A stretch of 64,000 bases of DNA from Roseateles sp. DAIF2 (GTDB lineage: Bacteria > Pseudomonadota > Gammaproteobacteria > Burkholderiales > Burkholderiaceae_C). The stretch lies in assembly GCF_015624425.1 (NCBI RefSeq), contig NZ_CP049919.1, positions 2,356,001 through 2,420,000 of the forward strand, written 5' to 3'. The translations under genes were made by a program, and so were the position numbers. This document shows positions 1 through 15,193 of this stretch, in pieces. Position 1 is the first letter of the stretch. The number at the start of each line of letters is the position of its first letter. The notes beneath the pieces were generated by a model, which saw only the letters and a program-made list of their open reading frames with translations, did not search any database and was not told the origin of the DNA.

Positions 1-585
1 GCGCTGCAGCGGCGCCAGCCAGTCCTCGTCGAGCCGGCCCAGGCCCTCGGCCAGCGCCGGCTGGCGCGCGGCCAGCAGGGCCTGCAGGCCCTCGGGCGGG
101 CTGATGCGGCTCAGGCGCTCCAGCACCAGGCCCTGCTGCGGCGCGCGCTGCAGCTGCTGCCACAGGCGCCGCCCCTGGCGCCGTGCCAGCCGCTCCAGCC
201 AGGCCGACAGGCCCTGGCCGCTGGGCGGCCGGGCCAGCTGCCAGGGCAGGCAGCCATGCAGCAGGAAATGCAGGAACTGCTGCAGCTCCAGCGCCGCGGC
301 GGGCAGGGCCACTGGCGGGCCGGCCGGGCCCAGGGCCCGCGCCAGCGCCGCGTCGATGCGCGCGCGCCAGCGCTCGGGCGGGTCGTCCAGCCGCAGGCGC
401 CCGAGCCGCAGCTCCAGGCGTTCGATGCGCCGGGTCCGGTCGGCCGGCGCCTGGGCATCGAGCGCCTCGGCCAGCAGCGGCAGCAGCCGGCCATGCAGCA
501 GCCGGGTCAGCGGCTCGGCCTGCTCGGGGCTGGCCAGCCGGGCCCGCAGGGCCAGGGTCTCGATCTGATGCCGGTGCGCGCTCAT
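1..585 (-). CDS. eCIS tape-measure protein, N-terminal part (cut by window edge)
   Basis: The frame opens at ATG 585, ten bases after the stop of the baseplate gene before it, and stays open for 195 codons to position 1. A GAGG ribosome site lies eight bases upstream of the start. The N-terminus has a helix with HQIETLALRARL, then RRIERLELRLGRL near residue 50. This matches what I recall of the contractile injection system tape-measure family (CIS_TMP, PF19268), whose N-terminus has an R(I/L)-x-x-LE-x-x-LG pattern. In that family the protein sets tail length inside the sheath and tube. The visible part is rich in Leu, Ala and Arg and looks helical. Only the start is in view, so full length is unknown. 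The AAA+ ATPase usually next to this gene would lie beyond the left edge. Confidence 0.75.
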   Translation of the reverse strand, partial: MSAHRHQIETLALRARLASPEQAEPLTRLLHGRLLPLLAEALDAQAPADRTRRIERLELRLGRLRLDDPPERWRARIDAALARALGPAGPPVALPAAALELQQFLHFLLHGCLPWQLARPPSGQGLSAWLERLARRQGRRLWQQLQRAPQQGLVLERLSRISPPEGLQALLAARQPALAEGLGRLDEDWLAPLQR

Positions 586-595
586 CGCCAGGGCC

Positions 596-3076
596 TCATG
601 CGTCCGAGACGCGGCCGCGCAGCCAGGCGACCAGGGTCGCCGCGCGCTCGTCGACGCGGCGCTGCGCGCCCGCCACGCCGGCATCCTCCAGCAGCGCCTG
701 GCAATGGGCCCGCTTGGCCAGCAGCCAGGCCTGCCACAGCGTCTCGAAGCGCTGCAGCGAGGCGGCGCCGAGCCACAGCAGCTGGCAGCGCAGCTGGGCC
801 GGCGCGGCCTCCAGCAGGCGCGCCTCGGCCAGGCTGCGCAGGCGCGGGTCGGCGCAGCGCGCGGTCCAGCCGGGCAGCACCAGGGTCAGGTGTTGCCGGA
901 AGAAGTCATCCAGGGTCTCGGGCCGCTGATCGGCCGCGCCGGGGCGCAGCAGCAGATGCTCGACCAGGTGCAGGCCCTCGCTGCGCAGCTGCAGCCGGCA
1001 CAGCGCGCGCAGCAGGGCCTGGGCGCGCCGGGCGGCCGCCTCGGCGCTGGCGAAGCGGCCCAGCGGCCAGCTCCGGCCCTCGGCATCGGGGCCAACGCGC
1101 AGCAGCCAGTGGCTGCCCTCGGCGCGGCAGGCAAAGGCCTGCGGCTGCGCCGCCGCGCGCAGCAGCGCGGCATCGCCGCCGGCCGCGCCCAGCCATTCGG
1201 CCAGCGGCACGGGTTCCGCCGGTTCCGCGCCATCGCCCGGGGTGAGGGTCAGGACTTGCCAGGCCTCGTCTTCGGGTTCGGTGAGAGTTGCGGGCGAGGG
1301 CGGGCGTGGCGGCGGCTCCAGCGGCAGCAGGCCGGCCTCCTGCAGCGGCTGGCTCAGCAGCGGCCCGCCCAGCAGGGCCAGCTGCAGGGCCAGGCGGCGC
1401 TGCAGCGGGGCGGCGCGTTCGGGTTCGCGCTCGGGGCCGGGCTGGCTGTAGTCGAAGCCGGCATGGCGCTCGCCGGTGAGGTCCAGCAGCAGGCGCGCGT
1501 AGCGGCGTTTGGCGTCCAGCAGGCGCAGCGCCCAGGCGCTCTCGTCCAGGTAGCGCGGCAGGTCCTGCAGCGGGGTCGGGTCCAGCTGTTCGCCATGCAG
1601 GGCCAGCAGCTGGTCCAGCGCGCGGGCGCGGCGCTCGGCGCCGGGCTCATGGCCGGCCAGCAGGTCGCTGCCGAAATGCGCCTCGTCCCCGGCCGGCGGC
1701 AGGTACAGGGCCTCGATGCCGGGCAGCTGCTGCGCGTTCAGGCGCTCGCACCAGTAGCTGCGCGGATCGGGGTTCTCGATGTCGTACAGCGCGTCCAGGT
1801 GCAGGCGCTGCGCGCGCAGCTGGGCCAGCGGATGTTCCAAGAGGGCCAGGTAGCCGGCCCATTGGGCGCGTTGGCCGGGCGGCAGATGGGTCGGCTGCTC
1901 GCTGCTCCAGCGCAGCGCCAGCGGCTCGCGGTAGACCTCGGGCAGCTGGCGGCTGGCGGGGTCGTAGCGCGGCACCGGCTCGGGCGCGACGGCCGGCCGT
2001 CCCGGCGTGCTTCCTGTCGCGACCGCGCCGTTGAGCGGCGCTGCGCCGGCCTTGCCGGCCCGGCGCAGGTCCTGCAGATGGTGCAGCAGCTCCTGGGCCG
2101 GCAGCGGCAGCAGGGCGCCGCCGCGCCGCACCTTCCAGCCTTCCAGATCGGCCGCGCGCTCCGGCCAGCACAGGCGCATGCCCCAGCCCGGGCCGCGCCA
2201 CAGCAGGGCCTGCGCATCCTCGGGCTCGGCCGCCGCGCCGGCCGGCGCGGGCGTCGGCTGCGCCGGGTCGACCGAGCTCAGCAGCAGGCGCTCGATGCTG
2301 CGCAGGCCCGGCACGCGGCGCAGCGCGCGCGCCAGGTCGCTGACATAGAGCCGGCCGGACTGCACGCGCAGCAGCTCGTCGGCCGGCGGCGGCAGATGCG
2401 GCCCGGCCGGCTCGGGCATCGCGGCGAGGAAGCGGTCGCAGCCCCGCACCAGCTCGCCCAGCAGGCCGATCAGCTCATGGTCCTCGTCCACCTCCAGCTC
2501 GACCTGCAACCGCACCCAATGCGGCCGCAGCAGTTCCGGCAGGCCGCACAGGTCCTCGCCCAGATTGCGCTGGCGCCAGTAGCGCTGCGCCAGCGCGGCG
2601 GCCTGGCGGCGCAGCGCGGCGGGCGGCTGCCGGTCCGGCCCCAGCTGGCGCCAGGACCACAGGCCCAGCGGCCGGCCGGCGCCGTCCTCCAGCGCGCTCA
2701 GATCGGCATGGCGCGGCGCGGGCTGCTGCGCATGCAGCCAGGCCAGCTGGTCCAGCGCGCTGCAGGGCCGGTGCCGCAGCACCGCCTCGGGCCCATGCAG
2801 CGCGAAGCGGCGCGCGGCCGCATCCGGGTCCTCCGCGCCCAGGCCCAGCAGGGCCGGCACCTCGTCCTGGGCCGCATAGATCTCCTCGGTCAGCGCGTAG
2901 ACCAGGGTCTCGAGCAGGGTGACGCCGGGGTCGTGCAGGTTGTAGTCGGTCCATTGCGCGCCGCTGGCCTGCTGCACCCAGTCCAGCGCCCGCGCGCGCA
3001 GGGTCGCGAAGCCGTAGGCGGGCTCGCCCTCGCTCGGCAGTCGGGCGATGCGCTGGACGGGCTGCACGGCGCTCAT
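596..3076 (-). CDS. eCIS baseplate protein, Afp12/Pvc12-like (826 aa)
   Basis: Large baseplate wedge component of an eCIS. Around residue 45 it has the motif YNLHDPGVTLLETLVYAL, the hallmark of Afp12/Pvc12-type baseplate proteins (usual form DYNxHDPGITLLE). The start ATG at 3076 overlaps the previous stop as ATGA, so translation is probably coupled. The C-terminal third has a segment ending in RSEGLHLVEHLLLRP, which is also typical of this family. The rest is Leu/Ala/Arg-rich and low in recognisable motifs. It lies between the 265-residue unknown and the tape-measure gene, the expected place. Function rests on family and context. Confidence 0.85.
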   Translation of the reverse strand: MSAVQPVQRIARLPSEGEPAYGFATLRARALDWVQQASGAQWTDYNLHDPGVTLLETLVYALTEEIYAAQDEVPALLGLGAEDPDAAARRFALHGPEAVLRHRPCSALDQLAWLHAQQPAPRHADLSALEDGAGRPLGLWSWRQLGPDRQPPAALRRQAAALAQRYWRQRNLGEDLCGLPELLRPHWVRLQVELEVDEDHELIGLLGELVRGCDRFLAAMPEPAGPHLPPPADELLRVQSGRLYVSDLARALRRVPGLRSIERLLLSSVDPAQPTPAPAGAAAEPEDAQALLWRGPGWGMRLCWPERAADLEGWKVRRGGALLPLPAQELLHHLQDLRRAGKAGAAPLNGAVATGSTPGRPAVAPEPVPRYDPASRQLPEVYREPLALRWSSEQPTHLPPGQRAQWAGYLALLEHPLAQLRAQRLHLDALYDIENPDPRSYWCERLNAQQLPGIEALYLPPAGDEAHFGSDLLAGHEPGAERRARALDQLLALHGEQLDPTPLQDLPRYLDESAWALRLLDAKRRYARLLLDLTGERHAGFDYSQPGPEREPERAAPLQRRLALQLALLGGPLLSQPLQEAGLLPLEPPPRPPSPATLTEPEDEAWQVLTLTPGDGAEPAEPVPLAEWLGAAGGDAALLRAAAQPQAFACRAEGSHWLLRVGPDAEGRSWPLGRFASAEAAARRAQALLRALCRLQLRSEGLHLVEHLLLRPGAADQRPETLDDFFRQHLTLVLPGWTARCADPRLRSLAEARLLEAAPAQLRCQLLWLGAASLQRFETLWQAWLLAKRAHCQALLEDAGVAGAQRRVDERAATLVAWLRGRVSDA

Positions 3077-3870
3077 TTGACGGCTCCGGGCGCGGCCTGG
3101 CCGCCTTCCATATGCGGGTCGAACCAGAGCTGGGTCAGGTGGGCCTGGATCAGCTGGCCCGGGCCGAAGTTGCAGCCGCTGCGGATCTGCAGCCGGTAGC
3201 TGGCGTCGCGGCCATGGCCGCCGAACCAGCGCAGCTCCAGCCGGTCGCAGCGCCGGCCCCACCAGGCCTGGGTCTGGCGGATGCCGCGGCGCCGCTGCAG
3301 CCAGCCGAGGAGGCCGCCGCCGGGGTTGTAGGCGCTCAGCGCGACCGCATGCAGCAGGCCGAAATGGCCGCTGCCGGGCTTGCCGGCGCCGGCCACCACC
3401 TCGAAGCCATGGCAGCCATGCAGGTCGCCGCTGAGGTCCTGCCAGCTGCCGTCGGCCAGCAGCGGCGCGCGCTGGGTCTCGCCCCAGCGGCCGCGCCGGC
3501 CCTCGCTGGCGGCCACGCCGGCGACGTCCAGCATGTCGCGCGGCTCGCTGCGGCCCAGGCCGACGCGCTGGCGGGCGTCCAGGTTCAGGAGCGGCTGCTC
3601 GGTCTCGCCGCCGCCGATCTGCAGCTGGTCCGCGGTGCTGCCCAGGCGCACCCGCCACAGCGCGGCGCCGGGGTTGCGGTCGCGGTAGAAGCTCAGCAGG
3701 GTGTCATGGCCGACCGCGGCATAGATCTCCTCGCCGTTCTCGACACTCTTGCGGAAACCCTCATCGCTCATATTGAGCATCGAGTCGATCAGGTCGACGA
3801 AATGGCCCTCGCTGGGCAGCTGGCCGGCGCGGAAGTAGCTGCGCAGGGTCTCGCGGTTGCGGCTGGTCAT
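3073..3870 (-). CDS. eCIS-associated protein of unknown function (265 aa)
   Basis: It starts at ATG 3870, overlapping the Afp11-like stop (ATGA), and its own stop overlaps the start of the Afp12-like gene. The N-terminus has TLRSYFRAGQLPSEGHF followed by LIDSMLNMSDEGF (residues about 8-38). The C-terminal half has a compact beta-rich module: DLHGCHGFEVVAGAGKPGSG, then LLHAVALSAYNP, then ending LTQLWFD. From memory, proteins with these two modules recur in eCIS loci of Bacteroidota and Proteobacteria, always beside baseplate genes, with no assigned function. Possible roles are a fibre/receptor-binding element or a baseplate accessory. The module order suggests an N-terminal anchor and a C-terminal globular domain. 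This is inference. Confidence 0.65.
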   Translation of the reverse strand: MTSRNRETLRSYFRAGQLPSEGHFVDLIDSMLNMSDEGFRKSVENGEEIYAAVGHDTLLSFYRDRNPGAALWRVRLGSTADQLQIGGGETEQPLLNLDARQRVGLGRSEPRDMLDVAGVAASEGRRGRWGETQRAPLLADGSWQDLSGDLHGCHGFEVVAGAGKPGSGHFGLLHAVALSAYNPGGGLLGWLQRRRGIRQTQAWWGRRCDRLELRWFGGHGRDASYRLQIRSGCNFGPGQLIQAHLTQLWFDPHMEGGQAAPGAVK

Positions 3871-6800
3871 CGGACGGCCTCCGCCGGCAGATCGTTGCCA
3901 TCGCCGCTGCCGATGATGAAGCTGGCGCCCAGCGCGAGCCGGCCCAGGCCGGTGCTGCGCGGGCTGCTGCTGCGGTCCTCGCCCTGCAGCTCCAGCAGAT
4001 GGCCGCGGGTCGGCAGGGCCAGGCTGCAGCGCTGCAGCGGGCGCAGCTGGGGCCGGCCCTGCGCGGCGCGGGCGGTGTCGTGCAGCTGGTAGACGCCGGC
4101 ATCGCTGCGCGTGATGTGCAGCAGCGACAGGCCCAGCACCGCGTCGACCCCGTCCTGGGCGCGCAGATGCGCCTCCAGTTCCTCGGTGCGCAGGGTCCAG
4201 TCGAAGCGCGCGGTGATGCCGCCGGGCCGCCAGGGCGAGAGGTAGTCGCGCAGGCTCTGGTTCAGCAGTCGCAGCCGCTCGCCGGCCTGCACGCCGGCGC
4301 TCAGGCGCAGGCGGCAGCGCACCTGGATGCGTTCGTAGGCCGGGTTGCGCACCAGCAGGCGTAGGCCCGGCGGGCAGCGCGCGGCGAGGAAATGGCGGAT
4401 GCGTGCCAGCGTGGCGGCGTCCAGGCGCGGCGCCTCGGTGCCGTCCACCTCCTGGCCCGGCGGCAGCGCCGGCACCACCACCAGGGTGACCAGCGCCTGG
4501 GCCGCGTCGGCCGGCAGGCAGACCAGCTTGAAGACCTCGGGAAACTCCTCCAGCACCAGGCGCTCGCAGTCCCAGGCGTTGACCGCGCGGCCGCGGTGGC
4601 GCAGGCGCTCGCTGGCGCGCACGCGCAGCGCGGCCTCGTCCTCGGCGGCGCGCCAGTCGAAGCCCGGCAGCGGCTGGCTCAGCCCGGCCAGGCCGGGGAT
4701 GGCCGGCACCGCGGCCTGCACGCAATGCGCGGGCAGCGGCTGGGCCTCGGCCGCATCGGCCAGGCGGCGCGCGCTGATCGCCTGGGCCCACAGACCCTGC
4801 AGCGGCGCCAGCTGCTCCAGCCGCGCATCGCCGGACAGGCGCAGCCAGTACAGCGCCTCGCCGGGGACCTCGCCCTGCGGCGCGCGGCCCTCCAGCGCCG
4901 GGCAGCCGGGTGTCAGGCCGTCGGGCAGGTCCAGCATCAGCAGGCCGGTGCGCAGCAGGCCCTCGGTGCCGTCCTGCAGCACCCGGTAGGGCTCCAGCGC
5001 GCGCCAGCCCTTGTCGGTCCAGGCGGCCCATTGCAGGCGCGGCGCGGCCTGGTCCAGCGCCTCGCGGGCCAGGCCGCGGTCGAGCTGGAACAGCAGGCTC
5101 AGCACCGAGTCCGGCTCCGGGCCGCGCAGGCCGATGTAGAGCTGGCCCTGGCCGGGCCACAGCGGCAGCAGGGCCGGCAGCGATTCACCGGGCGGCGGCC
5201 GCAGCGGCGTGCGGCCGAAGGGGCCCAGCTCGATCAGCTGCGGCTGGCTGCCGTCGCCCTGCTGGGGACCGACCGCCGGGATGCGCTCGGCGGCGCTGTA
5301 GCTCAGGCTCAGGCTTTCCAGCACCGGGGTGTAGGGCGGCTGCGGCAGCTCGCGCGGCACCAGGCGCCAGCCGCCGCGGCCGTTGTGGCTCAGCACCTCG
5401 GTCAGCAGCGGCGGGTACAGCGCATGGCCGAAGGCCGGCGCCAGCAGCTGCAGGCGGAAGAAGCCCTGGCGGCTGGCCGGGCCGTAGTCCGCCAGCGCCG
5501 CGGCCTGCGCCGGCGTGACCGCCTGCGGCCGGTGCAGGCGCAGCAGCCGCGCGTCGCCCAGCGCCAGCTGCCGCTGCGCCGCATCGCCCTCGAACAGCGC
5601 CAGCTCGCCGGCCTCGCGCCATTGGCCGTCGCTGAGCACGGCGGCACGCACCCGGAAGCGCTCCGGCAGCCAGGGCCCTTGCGGATAGGCGCGGTAATGC
5701 CGGGCCAGGCCGCCCGGCGGCAGGCCGGCCCAGCGCAGCTTCAGGCTCAGCGACTGCAACGGCTTGGTCAGCAACTCGGGGCTGCCGAACATCAGATAGG
5801 ACGCGGTGTCGGGCAGCGGGCCAAAGGGCGCGAAGGGCTTGCCGGCGTCGAGCCGGCCGAGCTGGTTGAACAGGCGCAGGTCGGTCAGCCCGACCACCCG
5901 CACCGCCAGCCGCAGCTCCTGCAGGCGCAGCTGCTGCAGCAGGCCCAGGCCGAACAGGCGGCTGCGCCCGCTCAGCAGCAGCTGCAGCACCGGCTGGGCC
6001 GGCCAGCCCGGGCCATGCAGGGCCGCACTGCAGGGCACGATGGCTGGCTGCTCGGGCCGCAGGCGCAGGCGCAGCTGCAGGCCCGCCGGGCCACCCTCGG
6101 CCGCATCGCGGCGCCGCACCTGCACCTCGTCCAGTTTCAGCCAGCCGCCGGCGGCGCTCAGCCGCGCCTGCCAGAGGCCGCGGAACACGCGGTCGAACAC
6201 CAGTTCGCGCTCCAGCGGCGCCTGGCCGGCCAGCAGGCTCAGCGGGTCGTCCACCGTGGCCGTCGCCGGCAGTGGCAGCACGCGCCGCGCATGGGTCTGC
6301 AGGGCCCGGCGCAGGCCAGTCGGGAAACGCTCATCGGTGGCGCAGAGCCAGAGCGCGAACAGCCGGCCCAGGCGCGGCGCCAGCAGCTCGGCCTCGGCGG
6401 TCTGCAGGCAGTCGGCGCACAGGGCCGCGAGCCCGGGGCTGGTCTCGAGCTCGGCGGCCGCGACGCCGGCCTCTTGCAGCAGCGCGCGCCGGGCCGGGTC
6501 GAGCGCTGAGGCATCGCCGGGGCCGGCCAGGCGCAGCTCCAGCTCGATGCCGCGCTCGCCGCCGGCCAGGGCCAGCAGGCCCGAACTCAGGGCCAGGCCC
6601 AGCTCGGCGTCCGGCGCGCTGCCGCCGCCCAGCACCGGCCAGCTGGGCGCGCGCGGCAGCGCGGCCTGCTGCGGCTCCGGCGGGGCCAGCAGCGCGGCGC
6701 GGGCGCGGCTGGGATAGCCATACTCGCGCTCCGGCGAGATCAGCGGGTCATGCTCGAGGCGCAGGCTCAGGAGGCGCGCGACCTGCAGCTGGCCCAGCTC

Positions 6801-7709
6801 CAACGCCTGCTCGGCGGCGAAGAAGCGGTTGCGGCCATCGGCGGTCTTGCCGGCCTGGAACAGCGCGCCGGCCTCGATGCGCACCGGCTGCAGGCGGCGC
6901 GGGTCGCGGCGCAGCAGCAGATGCACGCGGTCGCGGCCGGCCGGGCGCGGCGCGAACCCCAGGCGCTCGTGGTAGTAATGGCGGATCAGGCGCTCGCCGA
7001 AATCGTTCAGCGGCGCGCGGCCATGGTCCAGCAGGCGCAGCAGGCCCAGCAGCAGGCCGGTGGCCGGCTCGTGATGGCCGCCGCCCAGGCTCTCAACCAG
7101 GGTCTCGCGGGCCAGCGCGGCGGCCTCGGCCTGCAGCCGGCCCAGCACCAGCCAGAGCTCGCGCAGGCGCCGCGCCAGCAGCGCGCGCGGCGGCGGCTCG
7201 ACCGCCGCGCTGCTCTCCAGGCCCCAGGCCGGATGGCGCGGCAGCGCGGCCTGGCGTGGATCGTCGACGCGGCGAAAGGCCGCCGACAGGACCAGCAGCA
7301 GCGGGCCGGCGCGCTGGGCGATGCGCTGGCGCAGCAGGGCCTGCACGCGCGGCGCGGCGTCCAGCCCCTGCAGCCATTCGTCGAGCCGGCCGGCCAGGGT
7401 CAGGCATTGCTTCCATTGCTGGGCGGGGCCGAGGCGGGTCCAGTCGTCGGGCGCATCGGTGGCGGGCTGCGGGCCGGCCGGCGCGGCGGCCAGCTCGGCC
7501 AGCAGCAGGCTGGGGTCGGTGCGCAACACCGCGGCCCAGTCGCCGCGCGGGCTGCCGGCCTCGTCGACGAAGCGCAGGCGGCGCGCCAGCGCCAGGCTCA
7601 GGGCCAGGCGCTCGGCCAGGCTCCATTCGTCCGGCCGCAACCGGGCGCCGTCGGGCGCGGTGGCGCCGCGCTCGCGCTGCTCGGTGCCGCTGCGCATGCG
7701 GGTGATCAT
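3867..7709 (-). CDS. eCIS baseplate protein, Afp11/Pvc11-like (1280 aa)
   Basis: The largest protein of the cluster and the main baseplate wedge protein. The start ATG 7709 shares one base with the stop of the gp25-like gene (TGATG), and its stop overlaps the next start. The last 230 residues contain the recognisable baseplate J-like part: RLRHRGRAVNAWDCERLVL, a stretch like VCLPADAAQALVTLVVVP, and VRCRLRLSAGVQAGERLR. These match phage baseplate J/gp6-type assembly proteins (putative baseplate assembly family). The N-terminal thousand residues show the usual Afp11 layout but no distinct motif. In phage and Afp this protein links the hub to the sheath initiator. Length fits the Afp11 class, which commonly exceeds 900 residues. 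Confidence 0.85.
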   Translation of the reverse strand: MITRMRSGTEQRERGATAPDGARLRPDEWSLAERLALSLALARRLRFVDEAGSPRGDWAAVLRTDPSLLLAELAAAPAGPQPATDAPDDWTRLGPAQQWKQCLTLAGRLDEWLQGLDAAPRVQALLRQRIAQRAGPLLLVLSAAFRRVDDPRQAALPRHPAWGLESSAAVEPPPRALLARRLRELWLVLGRLQAEAAALARETLVESLGGGHHEPATGLLLGLLRLLDHGRAPLNDFGERLIRHYYHERLGFAPRPAGRDRVHLLLRRDPRRLQPVRIEAGALFQAGKTADGRNRFFAAEQALELGQLQVARLLSLRLEHDPLISPEREYGYPSRARAALLAPPEPQQAALPRAPSWPVLGGGSAPDAELGLALSSGLLALAGGERGIELELRLAGPGDASALDPARRALLQEAGVAAAELETSPGLAALCADCLQTAEAELLAPRLGRLFALWLCATDERFPTGLRRALQTHARRVLPLPATATVDDPLSLLAGQAPLERELVFDRVFRGLWQARLSAAGGWLKLDEVQVRRRDAAEGGPAGLQLRLRLRPEQPAIVPCSAALHGPGWPAQPVLQLLLSGRSRLFGLGLLQQLRLQELRLAVRVVGLTDLRLFNQLGRLDAGKPFAPFGPLPDTASYLMFGSPELLTKPLQSLSLKLRWAGLPPGGLARHYRAYPQGPWLPERFRVRAAVLSDGQWREAGELALFEGDAAQRQLALGDARLLRLHRPQAVTPAQAAALADYGPASRQGFFRLQLLAPAFGHALYPPLLTEVLSHNGRGGWRLVPRELPQPPYTPVLESLSLSYSAAERIPAVGPQQGDGSQPQLIELGPFGRTPLRPPPGESLPALLPLWPGQGQLYIGLRGPEPDSVLSLLFQLDRGLAREALDQAAPRLQWAAWTDKGWRALEPYRVLQDGTEGLLRTGLLMLDLPDGLTPGCPALEGRAPQGEVPGEALYWLRLSGDARLEQLAPLQGLWAQAISARRLADAAEAQPLPAHCVQAAVPAIPGLAGLSQPLPGFDWRAAEDEAALRVRASERLRHRGRAVNAWDCERLVLEEFPEVFKLVCLPADAAQALVTLVVVPALPPGQEVDGTEAPRLDAATLARIRHFLAARCPPGLRLLVRNPAYERIQVRCRLRLSAGVQAGERLRLLNQSLRDYLSPWRPGGITARFDWTLRTEELEAHLRAQDGVDAVLGLSLLHITRSDAGVYQLHDTARAAQGRPQLRPLQRCSLALPTRGHLLELQGEDRSSSPRSTGLGRLALGASFIIGSGDGNDLPAEAVR

Positions 7710-8258: not shown

Positions 8259-8558
8259 TCAGCCTCCGATCAGGACGGTGAAGAAGCCGAGCACGATGCT
8301 GCCGCCATGGGCGGTGGTGTCGCCGACGCGGGCGGCCGGCTTGCCGCCGATCAGCACGGTGGCCGAGCCCTTGACGATGCTGTCCGGCGGACCGACGCAG
8401 ACCGCGTTGTCGCCGACCACCGCGGCCGGCAGCTTGCCGATCAGCACGCTGGGCACGCCGGGGCCGATCACTGGCCCGCCGACATGCGGAATCGGCGGCA
8501 GGCCCGGGGTCTGCATCGGGCAGCTGTGCATGTCGGTCAGACGGGCGGCGGGCGGCAT
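8259..8558 (-). CDS. PAAR-repeat spike tip protein (Afp10-like, 99 aa)
   Basis: Caps the spike with a sharp cone. It begins MPPAARLTDMHSCP and carries the PAAR motifs GGPVIGPGVPSVLIGKLPAA, VGDNAVCVGPPD, VLIGGKPAARVGDTTAHGG and VLIGG. His, Cys and His residues at the expected places (H12, C14, C54, H88) could bind the structural metal seen in PAAR proteins. Length is typical of a PAAR protein with no effector extension, so it carries no toxin domain. It follows the VgrG-like gene by 12 bases, which fits a spike-plus-tip pair. Confidence 0.93.
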   Translation of the reverse strand: MPPAARLTDMHSCPMQTPGLPPIPHVGGPVIGPGVPSVLIGKLPAAVVGDNAVCVGPPDSIVKGSATVLIGGKPAARVGDTTAHGGSIVLGFFTVLIGG

Positions 8559-8570: not shown

Positions 8571-10355
8571 TCAGTTGATCATCACCAGCGAGCCCTTGAC
8601 CGTGGTCTGGCCCGAGGCGGAGAGTTCGGCGCTGGCCGCGCCCTTGGCGGTGAGGCCCATCTGGGCCTCGCAGCTGATGTTCATGCCGCTGGCCTTGATG
8701 TCGGCCTTGGCGTCGAGCTTGATCGCGCCGCCGGCCTCCAGCGAGATGCCGCCCTGGGCGCTGAGCTTGATGTCCTTGGGGCTGTCCAGGGTGATGCCGG
8801 CGCTGTCGAGCTTGATGCTGTTGCCATGCTGGTCCTTGACCAGGATGCTCTTGTCCTTGTCGTCCAGCACCAGTTGGTTCTTGGCCGGTGTGGTCAGGGT
8901 GATGATCTTGTCGGCCTCGTTGAACTCGAAGCGGTGCTGGCAGCGGGTCACCAGGGCCTTGGTGTCGTTCTCGGCCGCTAGCGCATAGGGCGGGGTGCGG
9001 GCGCTGCTGTAGAGGCTGCCCAGCACGACCGGGTGGCAGGGGTCCTCGTTGAGATAGCCCAGCAGCACCTCGTCGCCGACCTCGGGCAGGAAGAAGGCGC
9101 CGAAGCCGCTGGAGGCGTGGAACTGCAGCAGCCGGGCCCAGACGCCCTCGGTCTCGCATTGCCAGGTCGGCAGGCTGACCTGGATCTTGTTCTCGCCCTC
9201 GGGGTCGCCGTCGAGCTTCAGCACCTTGCCGATCTGTAGGCCGCCGACGCCGGGCAGCAGGCCGGCGCCGGGCGGCACGCTGATGTCGGCGCGCTGCGCA
9301 TGCCATTCGGGATCGAGGCCGAACTCGGCCTGGGTGATCCAGTTGCCGTTCTCCAGCTGGTGCTCGACCGCGCTGAGGTAGACCGAGCCGGCGAAGCGTG
9401 CGCCGACGCCGGCCAGCTCCACCACCGCGCCGGGCTTGGCCAGGGCCGAGCCCTGGAAGCTCATGCGCCCGCGCACCCGCGCCAGCGCGGCGCGCAGCTG
9501 GGTGGCCTTGGCCCAGGCGTCCAGCATCTGCTGCTCCTGCGGCGCGCTGCTCTGCAGCTGCAGGCTGTCGGGCGCGGCGACCGCGGCCAGCTTGGCGCCG
9601 TCCAGATTGCCCTGCTGGCCGACGCTGGTGCTGGCGCTGCTGGCGCTCTGCACCAGGGCCTGGCTGTTCAGGCTCCAGGAGCTGGCCTGCACCGCGGTCC
9701 ATTGGCTGCGCGCGTCGATGTCGGCGCTGAAGTCGATCAGCTCGTCGCCCCAGGCCACGCTGAGCACCGCCGCCTCGGCCTTGGGCGGCTGGACGCTGAC
9801 CTGGCCGTCCGCCACCTGCACCACCAGGCCCAGCACCTGGGCGCGCGAGAGCATGAAGTCCCAGTCGCTGCAGTAGTACTGCACCAGCTCCTTGTGCGTG
9901 ACCGGGGTGTCGGCGACATCGGCGCCGAGGCCGGCGCGGCCGATCAGGTCCTGGATGATCGCGCTGTCCTTCTGGTCCACATAGTTGGCGCTGCGCCGGC
10001 CCAGGGTCATCTTGCAGGCCTTGTCGCGGCATTCCAGCACCAGGCGGGCCTCGTTGTTGCTGCCGATCTTCAGGCCGTGGCGCACCAGCAGGCCGCTGAA
10101 GATCTGGGTCTCGTCGTCGCCATAGCCGGCGCGGATCGAGATCTCGGCGCCGGGCTTGAACAGCGCGCCGTCGCTGAGCGGCATCTTGCCCTCGGGCATG
10201 TCGCCGTCGGCCAGGGTGATGCGGGCCCAGGGGATCGCGTTCAGCGCGCTGCGCACCGTGACGCCGAGCAGGGGCAGCCCCTCCTGCTCGCTGCCGTCGC
10301 AGCTGAGCACCAGGCGCAGCGCGCCGTCGCTGTGGTCGCTGGGTTTGGCGGCCAT
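8571..10355 (-). CDS. VgrG-like spike/hub protein (Afp8-like, 594 aa)
   Basis: Trimeric needle/hub of the contractile machine. The N-terminal part (about residues 10-330) is gp27-like, including FKPGAEISIRAGYGDD and IFSGLLVRHGLKI. A gp5-type OB domain follows near residues 390-460 (QVSLPTWQCETEGVWARL, then FFLPEVGDEVLLGYLNEDP, then PVVLGSLYS). The C-terminal 130 residues are a repetitive beta-helix built from I-x-L-x-x-x-x-x-I repeats (KDIKLSAQGGISLEAGGAIK). Length matches the Afp8/Pvc8 class, and no effector domain is fused to the end. It lies between the LysM adaptor and the PAAR tip. No T6SS core genes are nearby, so eCIS membership is favoured. Confidence 0.92.
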   Translation of the reverse strand: MAAKPSDHSDGALRLVLSCDGSEQEGLPLLGVTVRSALNAIPWARITLADGDMPEGKMPLSDGALFKPGAEISIRAGYGDDETQIFSGLLVRHGLKIGSNNEARLVLECRDKACKMTLGRRSANYVDQKDSAIIQDLIGRAGLGADVADTPVTHKELVQYYCSDWDFMLSRAQVLGLVVQVADGQVSVQPPKAEAAVLSVAWGDELIDFSADIDARSQWTAVQASSWSLNSQALVQSASSASTSVGQQGNLDGAKLAAVAAPDSLQLQSSAPQEQQMLDAWAKATQLRAALARVRGRMSFQGSALAKPGAVVELAGVGARFAGSVYLSAVEHQLENGNWITQAEFGLDPEWHAQRADISVPPGAGLLPGVGGLQIGKVLKLDGDPEGENKIQVSLPTWQCETEGVWARLLQFHASSGFGAFFLPEVGDEVLLGYLNEDPCHPVVLGSLYSSARTPPYALAAENDTKALVTRCQHRFEFNEADKIITLTTPAKNQLVLDDKDKSILVKDQHGNSIKLDSAGITLDSPKDIKLSAQGGISLEAGGAIKLDAKADIKASGMNISCEAQMGLTAKGAASAELSASGQTTVKGSLVMIN

Positions 10356-10361: not shown

Positions 10362-11057
10362 TCAGCCCAGCGGCGGGAAATGCAGGCGCTGGCCCGGCTC
10401 CAGCCGGCGGAACTCGCGCAGGCCGTTGAAGCGGGCCACCTGGGGGTAGTAGCGGCTGTCGCCATAGATGCGCAGGCACAGCAGGGGCAGGGTGTCGCCG
10501 GCGCGTACCTCGACCGAATGGCTCAGGTCGGGCGAGCTGCGGTTGGCGGTCAGCTGGCCCTGCCGGGCGGTGACGAAGCCGACGAAGCCGAGGTCGGACT
10601 TGGCGCGCAGCGGCGCGCCGCTGGGCTTGAACAGGGTGTACTGGGTGCTGATCTTCTGCAGCCGGCCGTAGAAGATCAGCGTGCCCCAGAGGATCTGCAC
10701 ATGGTAGGGCTCATGCTTGGCGCCGTCGTAGTCGTAGATGATGCGGCTGAGCGCCTCGATCTGGCCGGCCACCTCGGCCGGCGCGTCGTTGCCCGGCGGC
10801 ACCGGCACGACGCCGGTGCCGTCGAAGGTCAGCGAGAAGCTGATCTTGTCCGGCTGCACCGCCGAGAAGCGCGCCGGGTTGCCGGTCTGGCCCAGGGTCG
10901 GGCGGGTGTTGTAGCAGATGCGCCGCTCATGGCTGAACTCGGACGGGTTGATCACCAGCTTGTAGTTGCGCTTGTCCTCGACATAGACCTTGCCGTCGCT
11001 GCCGATGCTGCAGCGGGTGATCGTCATCGACTGCTTGGTGCCGTTCGCGGTCGCCAT
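10362..11057 (-). CDS. LysM-type hub adaptor (Afp7-like, 231 aa)
   Basis: Adaptor between inner tube and spike, equivalent to gp53/Afp7. The C-terminal 50 residues form a LysM-like fold: SVEVRAGDTLPLLCLRIYG, then YYPQVARFNGL, then LEPGQRLHFPPL. The N-terminal 180 residues contain FNPSEF-like VINPSEFSHE and a beta-rich segment. The start ATG 11057 lies one base past the stop of the DUF5908 gene. Neighbours on both sides are structural eCIS genes in the standard order. Confidence 0.88.
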   Translation of the reverse strand: MATANGTKQSMTITRCSIGSDGKVYVEDKRNYKLVINPSEFSHERRICYNTRPTLGQTGNPARFSAVQPDKISFSLTFDGTGVVPVPPGNDAPAEVAGQIEALSRIIYDYDGAKHEPYHVQILWGTLIFYGRLQKISTQYTLFKPSGAPLRAKSDLGFVGFVTARQGQLTANRSSPDLSHSVEVRAGDTLPLLCLRIYGDSRYYPQVARFNGLREFRRLEPGQRLHFPPLG

Positions 11058-11058
11058 C

Positions 11059-11265
11059 TCAGCGCTCTTTCAATTGCTGCAGCTGCTCCAGCAGCCAGAC
11101 CCGGCATTCGGCCAGGATGTCCTGCTTGAGCTGTTCGCGCTTGCCGTCGCCGTCGCCGCAGCAATCGTCGTCCTCGGGTTCCTCGTCCTCGTCGTCGGCC
11201 TCGGCGGCCTGGCGGCCGCGGGCGATCTCGGTGTCGAGCAGCAGTTGGCGGATCTCGAGCGGCAT
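11059..11265 (-). CDS. DUF5908-like small eCIS protein (Afp6 position, 68 aa)
   Basis: The first residues MPLEIRQLLLDTEI match the usual beginning of DUF5908 proteins (MPIEI+EL), which sit between tube and LysM genes in eCIS loci. The middle is unusual: residues about 22-40 form a strongly acidic run with two adjacent cysteines (DDEDEEPEDDDCCGDGDG). An amphipathic C-terminal helix then ends EQLQQLKER. The role is unknown; position suggests a tube-baseplate chaperone or adaptor. Confidence 0.75.
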   Translation of the reverse strand: MPLEIRQLLLDTEIARGRQAAEADDEDEEPEDDDCCGDGDGKREQLKQDILAECRVWLLEQLQQLKER

Positions 11266-11278
11266 GTCGGGTCGTCCT

Positions 11279-11767
11279 TCAGTCGGGGCTGCCCAGGGTC
11301 TGGTAGGCCAGCTCGATGGTCTCGATCGCGGCCTCGTTCTTGGTGGAGCCGAAGCCGTCCACCTCCCAATGCACCGGGTAGGCGTTGCGGCACCACCAGA
11401 CCAAGAGCGGCTGGCCGTTCTCGTTGAGCAGCTGCACCTTGACGCTGGCGAGCTTGATCGGCTCGGCGAAGCCGCCCTCCAGCACCTTGGCGCACCAGCG
11501 CAGCAGCGGCGACTTGCGCGCCACCAGCGCGCGCTTCAGGCTGAGCCGGCGCGCCTGCGGCTGGCCGGGCAGCTGATGCACGAAGCGGTTCTCGCCGCCC
11601 TCGGCCAGCTCCTCGACATCGAGCTGGCTGCCCAGGCCCGAGACCTCCTGGAAGGCGAGCTGCAGCGGGCCGCCCTGGTCGGGCAGGCCCATGAACTCGA
11701 CCTTGAAGGCGAAGGCGACCGGCAGCTTGTCGCCATCGGCGGCGGCCGCGGGGGCTCGGGTGGCCAT
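11279..11767 (-). CDS. Inner tube protein 2 (gp19-like, Afp5-like, 162 aa)
   Basis: Tail tube protein. Family features are FAFKVEFMGL near residue 20, FQEVSGLGSQLDVEELAEGG (the F-x-E-V-S-G-L core), and the C-terminal NAYPVHWEVDGFGSTKNE, ending IETIELAYQTL. The initial low-complexity MATRAPAAAADGDK is probably flexible. Compared with the other tube protein it has a longer loop around NRFVHQLPGQPQ. In Afp this paralogue forms the tube layer next to the spike. It begins 14 bases after the stop of the first tube gene. Confidence 0.9.
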   Translation of the reverse strand: MATRAPAAAADGDKLPVAFAFKVEFMGLPDQGGPLQLAFQEVSGLGSQLDVEELAEGGENRFVHQLPGQPQARRLSLKRALVARKSPLLRWCAKVLEGGFAEPIKLASVKVQLLNENGQPLLVWWCRNAYPVHWEVDGFGSTKNEAAIETIELAYQTLGSPD

Positions 11768-11781
11768 GGCGCGCCGCCCGC

Positions 11782-12240
11782 TCAGGCGTTGGCGATCGTC
11801 AGGCCCTCATGCGCGATCTCGATGGTCTCGACCGCAACCTCGTTGCCCTCGGCCTTCAGATCGGTGCCGGTGATCTTGGTCGGCCAGGCATTGGTCAGGG
11901 TCCAGACCATGGTCGGCTTGCCTTCCTCGTCGAGCAGGCTGATCGTCACCGGGACGCGCTTGACCGTGTTCATCTTGATCTTGTTGAACCAGTCCCAGAA
12001 CTTGTTGTCCGACTTGAAGACGCCCTTCTTCATCGTGACATTGCCGTACTTCTTCAGGCCCGGCATCTTGGTGGGCGCGAACACCGGGCTGTCGCCATGG
12101 CGGTATTCGATCGGCTGGGCCTCGACGTCGAGGCCCGAGACCTCCTCGAAGGACAGCACGGCCGAATCCCATTTGACCTGGAAGTAGAACTTGGGCAGGG
12201 GCCAGACATTGGTCGATTGCTTGGAGCCGTCATCAGCCAT
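11782..12240 (-). CDS. Main inner tube protein (gp19-like, Afp1-like, 152 aa)
   Basis: Major tail tube subunit. It carries WPLPKFYFQVKWDSAVLSFE, then EVSGLDVEAQPIEYRHG, then KYGNVTMKKGVFKSDNKFWD, which are the standard gp19/Afp1 blocks. It ends NEVAVETIEIAHEGLTIANA. A strong ribosome site (GGAGAA) lies seven bases before ATG 12240. It is separated from the sheath gene by 38 bases, the normal sheath-then-tube order. Confidence 0.93.
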   Translation of the reverse strand: MADDGSKQSTNVWPLPKFYFQVKWDSAVLSFEEVSGLDVEAQPIEYRHGDSPVFAPTKMPGLKKYGNVTMKKGVFKSDNKFWDWFNKIKMNTVKRVPVTISLLDEEGKPTMVWTLTNAWPTKITGTDLKAEGNEVAVETIEIAHEGLTIANA

Positions 12241-12278
12241 GAGATTTCTCCGTTGGGGGTTTCTTGTCGCTCAAGGCC

Positions 12279-13892
12279 TCAGGACTTGGGCATCTGCTGC
12301 TGGAAGGTGATCTCGATGAACTCGGCCGGCCTGACCATCGCCACCAGCACGGTGACGCGCAGGATGCCCTCGAGGATGTCGTCCGGGGTCATGGTCTCGC
12401 CCAGGCCCACATGTACGCTGAAGGCGTCCTCGGGCACCGCGCCCATCAGGCCGCCGCGCTTCCACACGCTGGTGAGGAAGTTGCTGATCATGCTTTTGAT
12501 CGTGACCCAGGTATTGGCCACATTGGGCTCGAACACCATCGCCTTGGCGGCCAGGCGGCAGCTCTCCTCCAGCATGATCATCGTGCGGCGCACGTTGACA
12601 TAGCGCCAGTCTAGGCTGTTGCCGTCCAGGGTGCGCGCGCCCCAGACCAGCACGCCCTCGCCGATGAAGGCGCGGATCGCGTTGATGCTCTTGCCCTGGG
12701 CGGTGACGTTCAGGTCCTCCTGCTGCTCGGAGGAGATGCTGACCGTCGGCGAGATCACGCCGGCCAGGCTGACGTTGGCCGGCGCCTTCCAGACGCCGCG
12801 CGTGTTGTCGACCATCGTGTAGATGCCGGCCATCGCCGGGCTGGGCGGCATCACGTTGAGCTGGCGTCGCGCCTCGGTCAGCACGGTGTTGAACAGCGGG
12901 CTGATGCGGGCCAGGGTCTTGTTCAGCAGGCTCTTGCGCGCCAGCACCGCGGCAGCCAGATCGTCGGTGCTCAGCGGCTTGGCGTCGGGCTTCTGCTCGG
13001 CCTTGACCTGGGCGGCAAAGTCGGTCGTGATGCCGTCCACCGCGTCGTACAGGGCCTTGATGGCCGGGCCGGTGTCGGCCGGCGCGGTGGCCTCCAGCTT
13101 CAGCTCGGCGCGCAGCAGGGTCTTCAGCAGCTCGGCGCTGTCGGGCGCGATGTTCTCGAAACTGAGCTCCTTCTCGCCGACCACCGTGGTGTTGAGCCAG
13201 GGGTAGTAGGACGAGGCGAAGTCGAGGAAGTTGATGCCCAGGCCGTTGCGGAACTGGGCCACCGGGTCGCCGCTGGGGAATTCGCGCGGCTTGTCGCCGT
13301 TCCAGACGTCCAGGATCGCGACGCGGTTGCGCATCACATAGCCGCAATGCGCGAGCATGGCCTCCTGCAGGTCGTAGCAGATGTTCTGGCCGAGGCGCAC
13401 CGCCTCGGGGATCAGCAGCATCGTCGGCTCCTGCTCCTTGATCAGCTCGGCGATGCCCTTCTTGAACTGGTCGGGGTCCAGGTCCTGGCTGTAGTCGCCG
13501 ACCGAGACGATGTAGCAGGGGCCGCCGCCGTTCTGGAAGAAATGGCGTAGCGCGTTGTACAGGCCGTAGCTGCCGCCGGCGCTGCCGTCGACCTGGGCCA
13601 GCGCATAGCCCTTGGCGCTCTCCGGCTTGTCGGGCAGGGTGAGGGCGCGGAAGTCGATCCGGTCGGTCGCCTCGGCCAGCTTGAACAGCGGCTTGGGCGG
13701 GCCGCCGAAGTACTGGTGGTACTCGGCCATCGAGCTGATGCGCCAGGGGCGCAGCAACAGCGGCGTGTTGCGGTTGTCCGCCTTCTCGGTGTAGCCGACG
13801 AAGGCCGGCACCGCGGTGGCCACCTCGACCACGGAGTTCGGAAAGGCGTTCTTCTCGACGATGTAGACGCCCGGAGTTTTCATCACACCCAT
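12279..13892 (-). CDS. Contractile sheath protein (537 aa)
   Basis: Sheath subunit. The N-terminus KTPGVYIVEKNAFPNSVVEV and VPAFVGYTEKA are diagnostic of Afp2-type sheaths. The C-terminal third carries the interlocking conserved part: WGARTLDGNSLDWRYVNVRR, TMIMLEESCRLAAKAMVFEP, and the final strand VLVAMVRPAEFIEITFQQQM. I chose ATG 13892 because AGGAGA sits at the right distance; ATG 13883 (MKTPG) is the alternative. Only one sheath gene is visible here, whereas Afp itself has three. Confidence 0.95.
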   Translation of the reverse strand: MGVMKTPGVYIVEKNAFPNSVVEVATAVPAFVGYTEKADNRNTPLLLRPWRISSMAEYHQYFGGPPKPLFKLAEATDRIDFRALTLPDKPESAKGYALAQVDGSAGGSYGLYNALRHFFQNGGGPCYIVSVGDYSQDLDPDQFKKGIAELIKEQEPTMLLIPEAVRLGQNICYDLQEAMLAHCGYVMRNRVAILDVWNGDKPREFPSGDPVAQFRNGLGINFLDFASSYYPWLNTTVVGEKELSFENIAPDSAELLKTLLRAELKLEATAPADTGPAIKALYDAVDGITTDFAAQVKAEQKPDAKPLSTDDLAAAVLARKSLLNKTLARISPLFNTVLTEARRQLNVMPPSPAMAGIYTMVDNTRGVWKAPANVSLAGVISPTVSISSEQQEDLNVTAQGKSINAIRAFIGEGVLVWGARTLDGNSLDWRYVNVRRTMIMLEESCRLAAKAMVFEPNVANTWVTIKSMISNFLTSVWKRGGLMGAVPEDAFSVHVGLGETMTPDDILEGILRVTVLVAMVRPAEFIEITFQQQMPKS

Positions 13893-13910
13893 CTGGTTCT
13901 CCTGGTTGGG

Positions 13911-14615
13911 TCAGCGACTGACAAAGATCTCGGTGACGGCGATATGGCCGCCCTGGGGACTGGGTTCGCGCTGCAGCCCGCGCGGGGCCGCCGCCGGCAG
14001 GCGCTGGCGCAGCAGCTTGGGCGGCTGGCTGGCCGCGTCGCGCAGCTGGAAGCGGTGCGGCGACTGCTCGGCCAGCGCGAGGGCCGAGCGAGAACGGATC
14101 ACGAGGGCCAGCCGGCCGTCGGGCAGCCGCTCCTCGCTGGGCGGCTCGAACTGCACGGCGGCGCCGGCATCGACCAGCTCCGGCCGGTGCTCGCGCCAGT
14201 CGCCCAGCAGCAGGTACTTCCAGACCGTGCGGCGCGCCGGCAGATCCAGCTCGACCGCGCCGCCGAGGCGGGCGCGCCAGACGGTCTCCTCCTCGCCATC
14301 GTCCGCCTCGAACAGCGGCAGGCTCAGCGCCGGCAGCTCGCCGGGCTCGGTGTAGAGCGCGAAGGCCGGGTCGGCGCAGTCCAGGCTGAAGCGCAGCGCG
14401 CGCGGCGCGCGCTCGATCCAGAGCCGCTCCAGCGCCAGCGCGTCCGCATGCACCGCCAGGCCATGGCCGTTGCAGCGCAGCAGCAGGCGGTGCGCCGTCA
14501 GCGCGCGCCAGGTCTGGGCGTCGGGTGTGAAGCGCAGGCTGCGCGCCAGGCCGTCGGCGAAATAGCCATGCCGCACGCGGGCGCTGCCCAGCAGGGTGTA
14601 GGTTATCGGTCTCAT
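13911..14615 (-). CDS. eCIS-associated protein of unknown function (234 aa)
   Basis: It starts at ATG 14615, overlapping the DUF4255 stop (ATGA), and ends 18 bases before the sheath start. No enzyme motif is visible. It begins MRPITYTLLGSARVRHGYFA and ends HIAVTEIFVSR. The pattern H-x-Y-F-A-D-G near residue 16, then LRFTPDAQTWRALTAHRLLL, recalls a family found beside CIS and phage-tail sheath genes, but I cannot name a domain. The middle is predicted as beta-rich with many Arg/Leu pairs. Coupled translation with the cap and closeness to the sheath suggest a structural or assembly role. Confidence 0.6.
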   Translation of the reverse strand: MRPITYTLLGSARVRHGYFADGLARSLRFTPDAQTWRALTAHRLLLRCNGHGLAVHADALALERLWIERAPRALRFSLDCADPAFALYTEPGELPALSLPLFEADDGEEETVWRARLGGAVELDLPARRTVWKYLLLGDWREHRPELVDAGAAVQFEPPSEERLPDGRLALVIRSRSALALAEQSPHRFQLRDAASQPPKLLRQRLPAAAPRGLQREPSPQGGHIAVTEIFVSR

Positions 14616-15193
14616 GAGCTCAGGCCCCGCGCGTCGAGCTCGCGCACCAGCGGTTCGCGGGTGTCGATATGCTGGCCGTCGACGCTGATCATGCGCACGC
14701 GGTACAGCACCGAGGGCAGGTAGCGCCCGCTGTGGATGCCCCAGAGGCTGTGCATCTCGGAGCTGCTGAGGTTCTCGATGTTCAGCACCAGGCGCTCCAG
14801 GCGCTTGTCCAGTCCCGGCGTGTTGTGCTGGTCCAGCACCGGATGGGACTGGAAGAAAGCGATCGCGCCGGACAGGAACTTCAGCGCCTCCGGGTAGCTG
14901 GTGCCGCTGAAGTTGGCCGCGCACATCACCAGCAGGTTCAGGTAGACCGGCGCCGGCATCAGCAGCTGACCCGGGCTCAGGCCCAGGTTCTGGCCCGTGC
15001 CGGCGCGGTGGGCCACGCTGTCGCGCTCGACACCGGCCAGGAACAGCACCAGCTTGTTCGCCACCAGCGGCACCAGGCCGCCGTTCTGCTCATGCAGGTT
15101 CGACAGCACCGCGAGGTCCTCGTCGACCTGGAAGCGGCGACGCAGGTGCTCGTTGAGTTGCCCGGCCATCTGGCTCAAGGCGGCGTCGATCAT
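14612..15193 (-). CDS. DUF4255 tail terminator/cap protein (Afp16-like, 193 aa)
   Basis: The first gene of the visible eCIS operon. It begins MIDAALSQMAGQLNEHLRRR, then AVLSNLHEQNG and NKLVLFLAGVERDSVAH, matching the Pvc16 N-terminal domain (DUF4255). The middle block LMPAPVYLNLLVMCAANFSG, then YPEALKFLSGAIAFFQSHPV, is also conserved there. In Afp/PVC the protein caps the distal end of sheath and tube and fixes particle length. It starts at ATG 15193 with GGAG about ten bases upstream. It overlaps the following gene by ATGA. Confidence 0.93.
   Translation of the reverse strand: MIDAALSQMAGQLNEHLRRRFQVDEDLAVLSNLHEQNGGLVPLVANKLVLFLAGVERDSVAHRAGTGQNLGLSPGQLLMPAPVYLNLLVMCAANFSGTSYPEALKFLSGAIAFFQSHPVLDQHNTPGLDKRLERLVLNIENLSSSEMHSLWGIHSGRYLPSVLYRVRMISVDGQHIDTREPLVRELDARGLSS

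What the first reader, a model, noticed from the sequence alone, without database searches (positions are those of the whole stretch)
1..15193. Near-complete Afp/PVC-type extracellular contractile injection system with a single sheath
Fourteen consecutive minus-strand genes, mostly joined by ATGA/TGATG overlaps, follow the eCIS order cap, sheath, tubes, LysM adaptor, VgrG spike, PAAR tip, gp25, Afp11, Afp12, tape measure. Only one sheath and no effector are visible. The spike and PAAR carry no fused toxin, so any cargo, the AAA+ ATPase and fibres must lie left of the window. This is the best candidate for the special system here.
Basis: partly seen in the sequence, partly recalled or inferred. 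Interest (0 to 1): 0.75.

Follow-up and report, generated by a model that had tools for sequence, protein, structure and literature searches.

The report
Complete bacterial injection nanomachine with cargo
This is a complete gene set for a phage-tail-like molecular syringe in a Roseateles-like bacterium, with its own tail fibre, loading ATPase, candidate toxin cargo and an unusual membrane protein, so it is a good new example of a known kind of machine rather than a new kind.

Summary
In detail: 14 minus-strand genes (window 1-15193) encode an extracellular contractile injection system (eCIS). The flank left of the window completes it: rest of the tape measure, AAA ATPase, an 871-residue membrane protein, and three candidate cargo genes (a small basic protein, an ADP-ribosyltransferase, an eCIS_core/DUF4157 protein). 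'No effector' was a window-edge effect. The tail fibre is inside the window (3073-3870), not to the left; 13911-14615 is the cap adaptor. By sheath sequence it is nearest recent PDB deposits of a 'SalCis', then AlgoCIS and the Anabaena CIS, ahead of PVC/Afp. The island sits between ribE and aconitase, which are adjacent in a congener without it.

The least ordinary part is the 871-residue protein: a chitinase-fold (GH18) domain without the intact GH18 motif, plus three C-terminal hydrophobic segments. Its family follows the ATPase in 38 of 80 sampled loci (32 of 35 Pseudomonadota, 0 of 32 Bacteroidota) and in one family sample never occurred strongly without that ATPase. I found no paper describing it, but a relative has a solved structure (PDB 9r9a). 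Its role is inferred: envelope docking or release. Verdict: new member of a known kind, with one poorly understood component worth testing.

The parts
15400..16089 (-). NarL/LuxR-type response regulator upstream of the cap gene; candidate regulator of the operon
   Evidence: Response_reg 1.5e-26 and GerE 7.7e-18; a homologue (E 5.3e-78 to 5.6e-110) lies just upstream of cap in 8 of 9 family loci read, L123-L131 (in L126 and L128 a second, weaker partial hit lies between; L130 is the exception); none beside the cap in the two other-class-genome loci L132, L133
14612..15193 (-). cap protein (Cis16A / Pvc16 N-terminal domain only, 193 aa)
   Evidence: Pvc16_N 7.6e-28
13911..14615 (-). cap adaptor (Cis16B, Alg16B-like, 234 aa)
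   Evidence: profile of 12 homologues matches SalCis16b (9r9n_C, 2e-12), AlgoCIS cap adaptor (7adz, 7.7e-5) and, weakly, Anabaena All3326 (0.032); the single sequence matched nothing relevant
12279..13892 (-). single contractile sheath (537 aa)
   Evidence: Phage_sheath_1C 1.2e-10; PDB 9r9h_T 1.8e-197, AlgoCIS 7adz 6.2e-103
11782..12240 (-). inner tube 1
   Evidence: Phage_T4_gp19 1.7e-49
11279..11767 (-). inner tube 2
   Evidence: Phage_T4_gp19 6.3e-35
11059..11265 (-). small DUF5908 protein (68 aa)
   Evidence: DUF5908 1.8e-10
10362..11057 (-). CIS_tube protein (Cis7 position, tube-to-spike adaptor)
   Evidence: CIS_tube 1.2e-39; no LysM model matched
8571..10355 (-). VgrG-like spike (Cis8), no fused toxin domain found
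   Evidence: Phage_base_V 3.1e-19, Phage_GPD 5.4e-6 (below its cut-off)
8259..8558 (-). PAAR tip
   Evidence: PAAR_motif 3.4e-25
7709..8116 (-). gp25-like baseplate protein (Cis9)
   Evidence: GPW_gp25 2.6e-22
3867..7709 (-). baseplate protein Cis11 / Afp11-like (1280 aa)
   Evidence: TIGR02243 partial match 1.1e-10, below its cut-off; homologue in the same place in relatives
3073..3870 (-). tail fibre (Cis13), mini-fibre type: helical anchor 6-36, beta shaft 39-105, beta-sandwich head about 123-257
596..3076 (-). baseplate protein Cis12 / Afp12-like (826 aa)
   Evidence: PDB 9rce_B 'SalCis12' 5.9e-29, Anabaena All3315 3.3e-19, Alg12 1.4e-12
1..585 (-). N-terminal part of the tape-measure protein (CIS_TMP; 796 aa, continues about 1.8 kb left of the window). 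Further left on the same strand, L002 coordinates (L002 position minus 20000 = window position): ATPase 16744-18075, GH18-like membrane protein 14120-16735, 123-aa basic protein 13785-14156, ADP-ribosyltransferase 12511-13749, eCIS_core protein 10366-12495
   Evidence: CIS_TMP 1.8e-70 on L004:195-2585; flank genes

Best explanation
A complete, probably functional eCIS island, by sequence similarity nearest the AlgoCIS/'SalCis' systems, in a Roseateles-like bacterium. Shown from sequence: cap, cap adaptor, one sheath, two tubes, spike with PAAR tip, baseplate, mini-fibre, tape measure, AAA ATPase, three candidate cargo genes and a membrane protein, all on one strand. Inferred: particles assemble in the cytoplasm; the Pvc15-type ATPase helps load cargo into the tube; the mini-fibre head binds a (perhaps glycan) receptor on the target; sheath contraction injects an ADP-ribosyltransferase and an eCIS_core protein. 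The GH18-fold protein with three C-terminal hydrophobic segments most likely sits in the producer's inner membrane with its large part in the periplasm, and serves as an envelope station for the particle, for docking/firing or for release (about 0.45 and 0.3 respectively; neither shown). A LuxR-type response regulator probably controls the operon.
Against: No expression, particle or secretion data. The ADP-ribosyltransferase itself lacks an eCIS_core domain, and a leader-motif pattern that I made from relatives was found in none of the three cargo proteins here. No sigma-70-like promoter was found upstream, which means little at this G+C content. A short kinase-type gene that lies beyond the regulator in 7 of 8 family loci is missing here. 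Cis11 rests on position, homology to relatives and a sub-threshold NCBIfam match. Seven ATPase-positive family genomes and one Pseudomonadota locus (L107) have no match to the membrane protein, so it is not universal.
Confidence: 0.85

Rival explanations
1. The system acts inside or at the envelope of the producing cell: the GH18-like membrane protein recruits cytoplasmic particles to the inner membrane and triggers firing, as proposed for CisA in Streptomyces, so the particle is not mainly an extracellular weapon.
For: The only clear multi-pass membrane protein of the cluster directly follows the ATPase (12 of the cluster's proteins were scored) and is kept in that place in 32 of 35 Pseudomonadota loci. 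12 of 39 family members carry a peptidoglycan-binding-like motif of my own making and 2 of 38 match PG_binding_1. CisA precedent: PMC12237407, abstract and Discussion read.
Against: The cluster has a fibre without a hydrophobic segment, which fits target binding from outside. The window's own protein carries the Ig-type N-terminus, not the peptidoglycan-binding-like motif. CisA is described as bitopic with a cytoplasmic N-terminus; no homology test was made.
Confidence: 0.35
2. The membrane protein is a release or lysis factor that lets finished particles out through the peptidoglycan.
Against: The GH18 motif DGx[DN]x[DN]xE is intact in 0 of 39 members; position 4 is T in 33 of 39, and the Glu column is N, K, P, Q, V or R in 15 of 39, so classical GH18 catalysis is unlikely for the family. 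The register was set by sequence motif, not by structural alignment.
Confidence: 0.25
3. A T6SS fragment, tailocin or prophage remnant rather than an eCIS.
For: VgrG, PAAR and gp25 also occur in T6SS (recalled); the genome does hold a T6SS marker, TssK.
Against: Pvc16_N cap, CIS_TMP, CIS_tube, DUF5908, eCIS_core and an AAA ATPase are present; TssK is about 2.8 Mb away; no capsid family matched among the 20 cluster and 8 neighbouring genes scanned; all cluster genes are open.
Confidence: 0.03
4. The ADP-ribosyltransferase is an independent gene that merely lies next to the eCIS.
For: It has no eCIS_core domain of its own and no match was found in the nearest relative's island.
Against: It lies between the small basic gene and the eCIS_core gene with gaps of 35 and 15 nt, and three homologues are fused to eCIS_core.
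Confidence: 0.12

Closest known systems
'SalCis' PDB deposits 9r9h, 9r9i, 9r9n, 9rce, and 9r9a (no paper found)
   Same: best sheath, Cis12 and cap-adaptor matches (the label 'SalCis' is printed for chains of 9r9n and 9rce); 9r9a, labelled 'Uncharacterized protein', is a solved relative of the membrane protein (E 7.2e-103 with the family profile). That 9r9a belongs to the same study is my guess from its number
   Different: source organism, cargo and functional claims unknown to me; the window's own membrane protein alone did not match 9r9a by phmmer, only the family profile did
AlgoCIS (Algoriphagus machipongonensis, subtype Ib)
   Same: short cap of about 195 aa plus a separate cap adaptor, related sheath and baseplate Cis12 (PMC8894135 passages)
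   Different: the word 'transmembrane' does not occur in the AlgoCIS main text; the 32 Bacteroidota loci sampled here lack the GH18-like protein by phmmer and by profile at E 0.01
Anabaena thylakoid-anchored CIS (tCIS)
   Same: fibre N-terminus (Cis13), Cis12 and sheath are related
   Different: [quoted passage not shown] here Cis12 and Cis13 have no hydrophobic segment
Afp and PVC
   Same: overall eCIS plan and cap N-terminal domain
CisA of the Streptomyces CIS
   Same: a conserved membrane protein encoded with a CIS (PMC12237407, abstract and Discussion)
   Different: no GH18 fold mentioned in the parts read; not homology-tested

Membership tests
eCIS | contractile sheath, inner tube, baseplate, spike with PAAR tip | tested here: met
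   Pfam matches; Cis12 by PDB sequence match
eCIS | Pvc16-type cap, CIS_TMP tape measure, CIS_tube adaptor | tested here: met
eCIS | Pvc15/Afp15-type AAA+ ATPase in the cluster | tested here: met
   AAA 6.8e-28; the gene lies beside CIS_TMP as in relatives; not compared directly with Pvc15
eCIS | tail fibre at the baseplate | tested here: met
   attachment itself not testable
eCIS | DUF4157/eCIS_core or other effector genes near the operon | tested here: met
eCIS | no phage head and no T6SS membrane complex in the cluster | tested here: met
   Pfam scans of the 20 cluster genes and 8 neighbouring genes; TssK is 2.8 Mb away; TssJLM were not searched by their own models
eCIS | particle released from the producer and injecting a target cell | not testable with these tools
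   needs electron microscopy and assays
AlgoCIS-like subtype Ib | short cap and separate cap adaptor | tested here: met
   compared with PMC8894135 passages
AlgoCIS-like subtype Ib | phylogenetic placement in clade Ib | not tested
   only an ATPase tree without subtype reference labels was built
T6SS | trans-envelope complex TssJLM encoded with the tail genes | tested here: not met
   no such Pfam match among the 20 cluster genes
tCIS-type anchoring | membrane segment in Cis13 | tested here: not met
   maximum 19-residue Kyte-Doolittle mean 1.02
GH18 chitinase (the 871-aa protein) | GH18 barrel fold | tested here: met
   [not shown]
GH18 chitinase (the 871-aa protein) | DGx[DN]x[DN]xE catalytic motif | tested here: not met
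   0 of 39 members, the window's protein included; both GH18 chitinases farther left have it (motif recalled)
ADP-ribosyltransferase (R-S-E class) | Arg, STS and ExE motif residues | tested here: met
   invariant in 11 of 11; the class assignment is from recall

The most novel reading that the evidence does not exclude
Many Gram-negative 'extracellular' CIS of Pseudomonadota may in fact be envelope-stationed: a GH18-fold, probably catalytically dead, wall-facing protein with three inner-membrane helices, encoded next to the loading ATPase, would dock or license particles at the producer's inner membrane. That would make a membrane adaptor a general feature of this CIS branch and not a Streptomyces speciality.
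Probability: 0.35. Interest if true: 0.75.

Novelty: new member of a known kind. Interest (0 to 1): 0.5.

Why it matters
It gives a complete, compact eCIS with cultured close relatives (for example Roseateles asaccharophilus DSM 25082), a defined fibre and a candidate ADP-ribosyltransferase cargo that can be assayed. The GH18-like membrane protein travels with the Pseudomonadota-type system, yet of the 19 database relatives listed those with a source name are called 'Ig domain-containing', 'hypothetical' or, once, 'transposase'. Knowing whether it docks, fires or releases particles bears on an open question: how eCIS that assemble in the cytoplasm meet or cross their own envelope.

Tried and rejected
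T6SS or prophage origin: rejected on gene content and on the distant T6SS locus. Cargo as VgrG/PAAR fusions: no toxin domain above cut-off; a sub-threshold Tox-PAAR-like match (0.084) covers the PAAR region itself. A shared cargo leader motif: a pattern I composed from relatives' sequences was in 15 of 48 eCIS_core proteins, 6 of 130 other downstream genes and 2 of 679 others (one of those 2 being a relative of the 123-aa protein), against shuffled means of 0.4, 0.6 and 1.45, but in 0 of 3 cargo proteins here; the pattern was tuned by eye on the same data after a first version hit 5 of 48, 5 of 130 and 4 of 679. A lead only. Promoter scan: none found. Papers: searches for 'SalCIS', the PDB codes, glycoside hydrolase or GH18 with CIS terms gave no paper describing the membrane protein; none of the 15 listed of 23 papers held 'GH18'. 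The library lacks most subscription journals and preprints. 9r9a was not among the 50 rows shown by the fold comparison, whose library ends 8 April 2026; I presume later release but could not check. The deposit's organism was not identified. Foldseek searches of the PDB could not be started because the machine was busy; VIA-align was used instead, which re-ranks Foldseek's own top 1000. A search for remnants of the short kinase in the window and left flank gave nothing below E 0.24.

In the tree (79 loci plus the window) I left 5 rows unlabelled because the contig ended near the ATPase (L038, L078, L079, L094, L103), and L083 was not in the tree because its ATPase and tape measure were merged in my gene call; L044 and L084, weak profile matches, were labelled as lacking the gene. 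The tree is a quick one with weak deep branches; the label needs 6 changes against a shuffled mean of about 25.

Full report
What is there. The window is bases 2356001-2420000 of a single 6.01 Mb contig. Codon-usage gene calls over the window and 34 kb to its left, with the cargo frames taken from the ORF list, give on the minus strand from right to left: LuxR-type regulator, cap, cap adaptor, sheath, tube 1, tube 2, DUF5908, CIS_tube, VgrG, PAAR, gp25, Cis11, Cis13, Cis12, tape measure, AAA ATPase, an 871-residue membrane protein, a 123-residue basic protein, a 412-residue ADP-ribosyltransferase and a 709-residue eCIS_core protein. Pfam supports most of these; it found nothing above cut-off for Cis11, Cis12, Cis13, the cap adaptor and the 123-residue protein. 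From cap to the eCIS_core gene all lie on one strand; gaps are mostly under 40 nt, the largest being 142 and 119. Among named relatives the ATPase is closest to Roseateles asaccharophilus (86%).

Cargo. The eCIS_core/DUF4157 domain is a known marker of eCIS effectors (PMC11297309, passages and one section read), and this is the only match in the genome. The part of that protein after the domain has two other relatives among the candidates scored in a very large protein database (72% and 36% identical; a further 99% hit is taken to be the gene itself), one in Ascidiimonas aurantiaca, which suggests a rare and mobile cargo. The ADP-ribosyltransferase had 11 hits, one of them this gene itself; three of the others carry an eCIS_core domain as well, the best evidence that this enzyme is eCIS cargo. 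Motif residues R313, S340-T341-S342 and E384 are invariant in all 11 aligned sequences. ADP-ribosyltransferase effectors of eCIS are already in print: EAT1 of Rhizobacter sp. Root29 (PMC8213781, passages). The 123-residue protein has relatives in two Roseateles islands, L032 and L034, and no known domain. So cargo seems to turn over between close relatives.

The membrane protein. In a sample of 80 named ATPase loci (the best 80 of 562, itself a capped list), a phmmer match to it is the next gene after the ATPase in 38: 32 of 35 Pseudomonadota, 2 of 3 Thermodesulfobacteriota, 2 of 4 Fibrobacterota, the one SAR324 and the one Manganitrophaceae, 0 of 32 Bacteroidota, and none of the four remaining single loci (Chloroflexi, Balneolota, Cyanobacteria, unclassified). 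Of the three Pseudomonadota misses, L038 ends about 0.4 kb after the ATPase, L083 has the gene but my ATPase call was merged, and L107 lacks a match. A profile search adds weaker matches directly after the ATPase in L044 (8.7e-24) and L084 (5.5e-7), and elsewhere in the cluster in L045 (4.7e-6). In 399 genomes of the family (the window's own included), the family profile matches 18, 17 of them strongly (G587 only at 3.9e-4); all 17 are among the 24 with the ATPase at 1e-100, and the 7 others of the 24, at 49-56% ATPase identity, have no match, apparently another eCIS subtype. In a class-wide sample of 274 genomes its C-terminal half was found in 4 besides the window's own, all directly after the ATPase; 14 further genomes matched only the Ig-type region.

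Regulation and mobility. A response regulator homologous to 15400-16089 lies just upstream of the cap in 8 of 9 family loci (in two of these a second partial hit lies between), and beyond it in 7 of those 8 there is a gene of 213-241 aa; five of these were read and look like short soluble histidine kinases, one was tested (HisKA_3 and HATPase_c). Here that gene is missing and only distant kinases exist elsewhere (28-35% identity). The regulator is not beside the cap in the two loci of more distant class members, L132 and L133. In a congener without the system, ribE and aconitase end next to each other; in this genome and in G274 the island lies between them, and G274 keeps a 73-residue duplicate of the aconitase C-terminus on the ribE side, absent here. 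Of 3 genomes of the genus, the window's own included, 2 have the sheath. The island is therefore an accessory insertion, with G+C of 71.9% against 68.3% for both flanks.

How it probably works. Shown: the parts. Inferred from characterised eCIS: cytoplasmic assembly, ATPase-assisted cargo loading (Pvc15 precedent, PMC11495950, abstract start in a search listing), fibre-mediated target binding and injection. Unresolved: how the particle leaves or meets the producer's envelope. Because Cis12 and Cis13 here have no hydrophobic segment, the tCIS way of anchoring seems unavailable, and the GH18-fold protein is the only clear multi-pass membrane component among the 12 proteins scored. CisA in Streptomyces is a precedent for a membrane protein needed for firing (PMC12237407, abstract and Discussion read). 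I favour docking over release because the catalytic signature is gone, but only moderately.

Verdict. A complete eCIS with fibre, candidate cargo and regulator; a new member of a known kind, with one conserved, poorly understood envelope component.

Noticed in passing
L002:1878-6529 and the L003/L002 junction (about 13.5-20.2 kb left of the window): Cluster of chitinases: two GH18 with intact motif (one with ChiC domain by Pfam, the other by motif only) and one GH19. Probably unrelated to the eCIS.
   Followed up: partly
L122:2621-2842 (G274): 73-residue duplicate of the aconitase C-terminus beside ribE, followed by short pieces resembling a REP-type transposase (recognised by eye; Pfam found no family for the one piece tested): a possible trace of how the island integrated.
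   Followed up: partly
L082, L083 (= G071) and L090 (= G201), after the GH18-like gene: Gammaproteobacterial islands carry extra genes of about 473-488, 693-705 and 366-369 aa (the last two with N-terminal hydrophobic stretches by eye); G242 and G128 have a gene of similar size to the second (694 and 716 aa). None is in the Roseateles-type island; possible further membrane components.
   Followed up: no
eCIS_core and neighbouring cargo proteins in L032-L111: Recurrent N-terminal motif of the type DNRxxxxAQRxL or NSPRxxAQRxxL, shared by some cargo with and without the eCIS_core domain; a possible loading signal, though not found in the three cargo proteins here.
   Followed up: partly
L044, L046, L049, L052, L055, L064, L073, L082, L089, L090: A methyltransferase-like gene of about 200 aa (DxGCGxGD motif, by eye; cut by the contig end in L049) sits after the GH18-like gene or nearby; not in the window's island.
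   Followed up: no
G000:C1:5181481-5182755: A T6SS marker (TssK, 1.0e-153) elsewhere in the genome, so the bacterium probably has both machine types.
   Followed up: no
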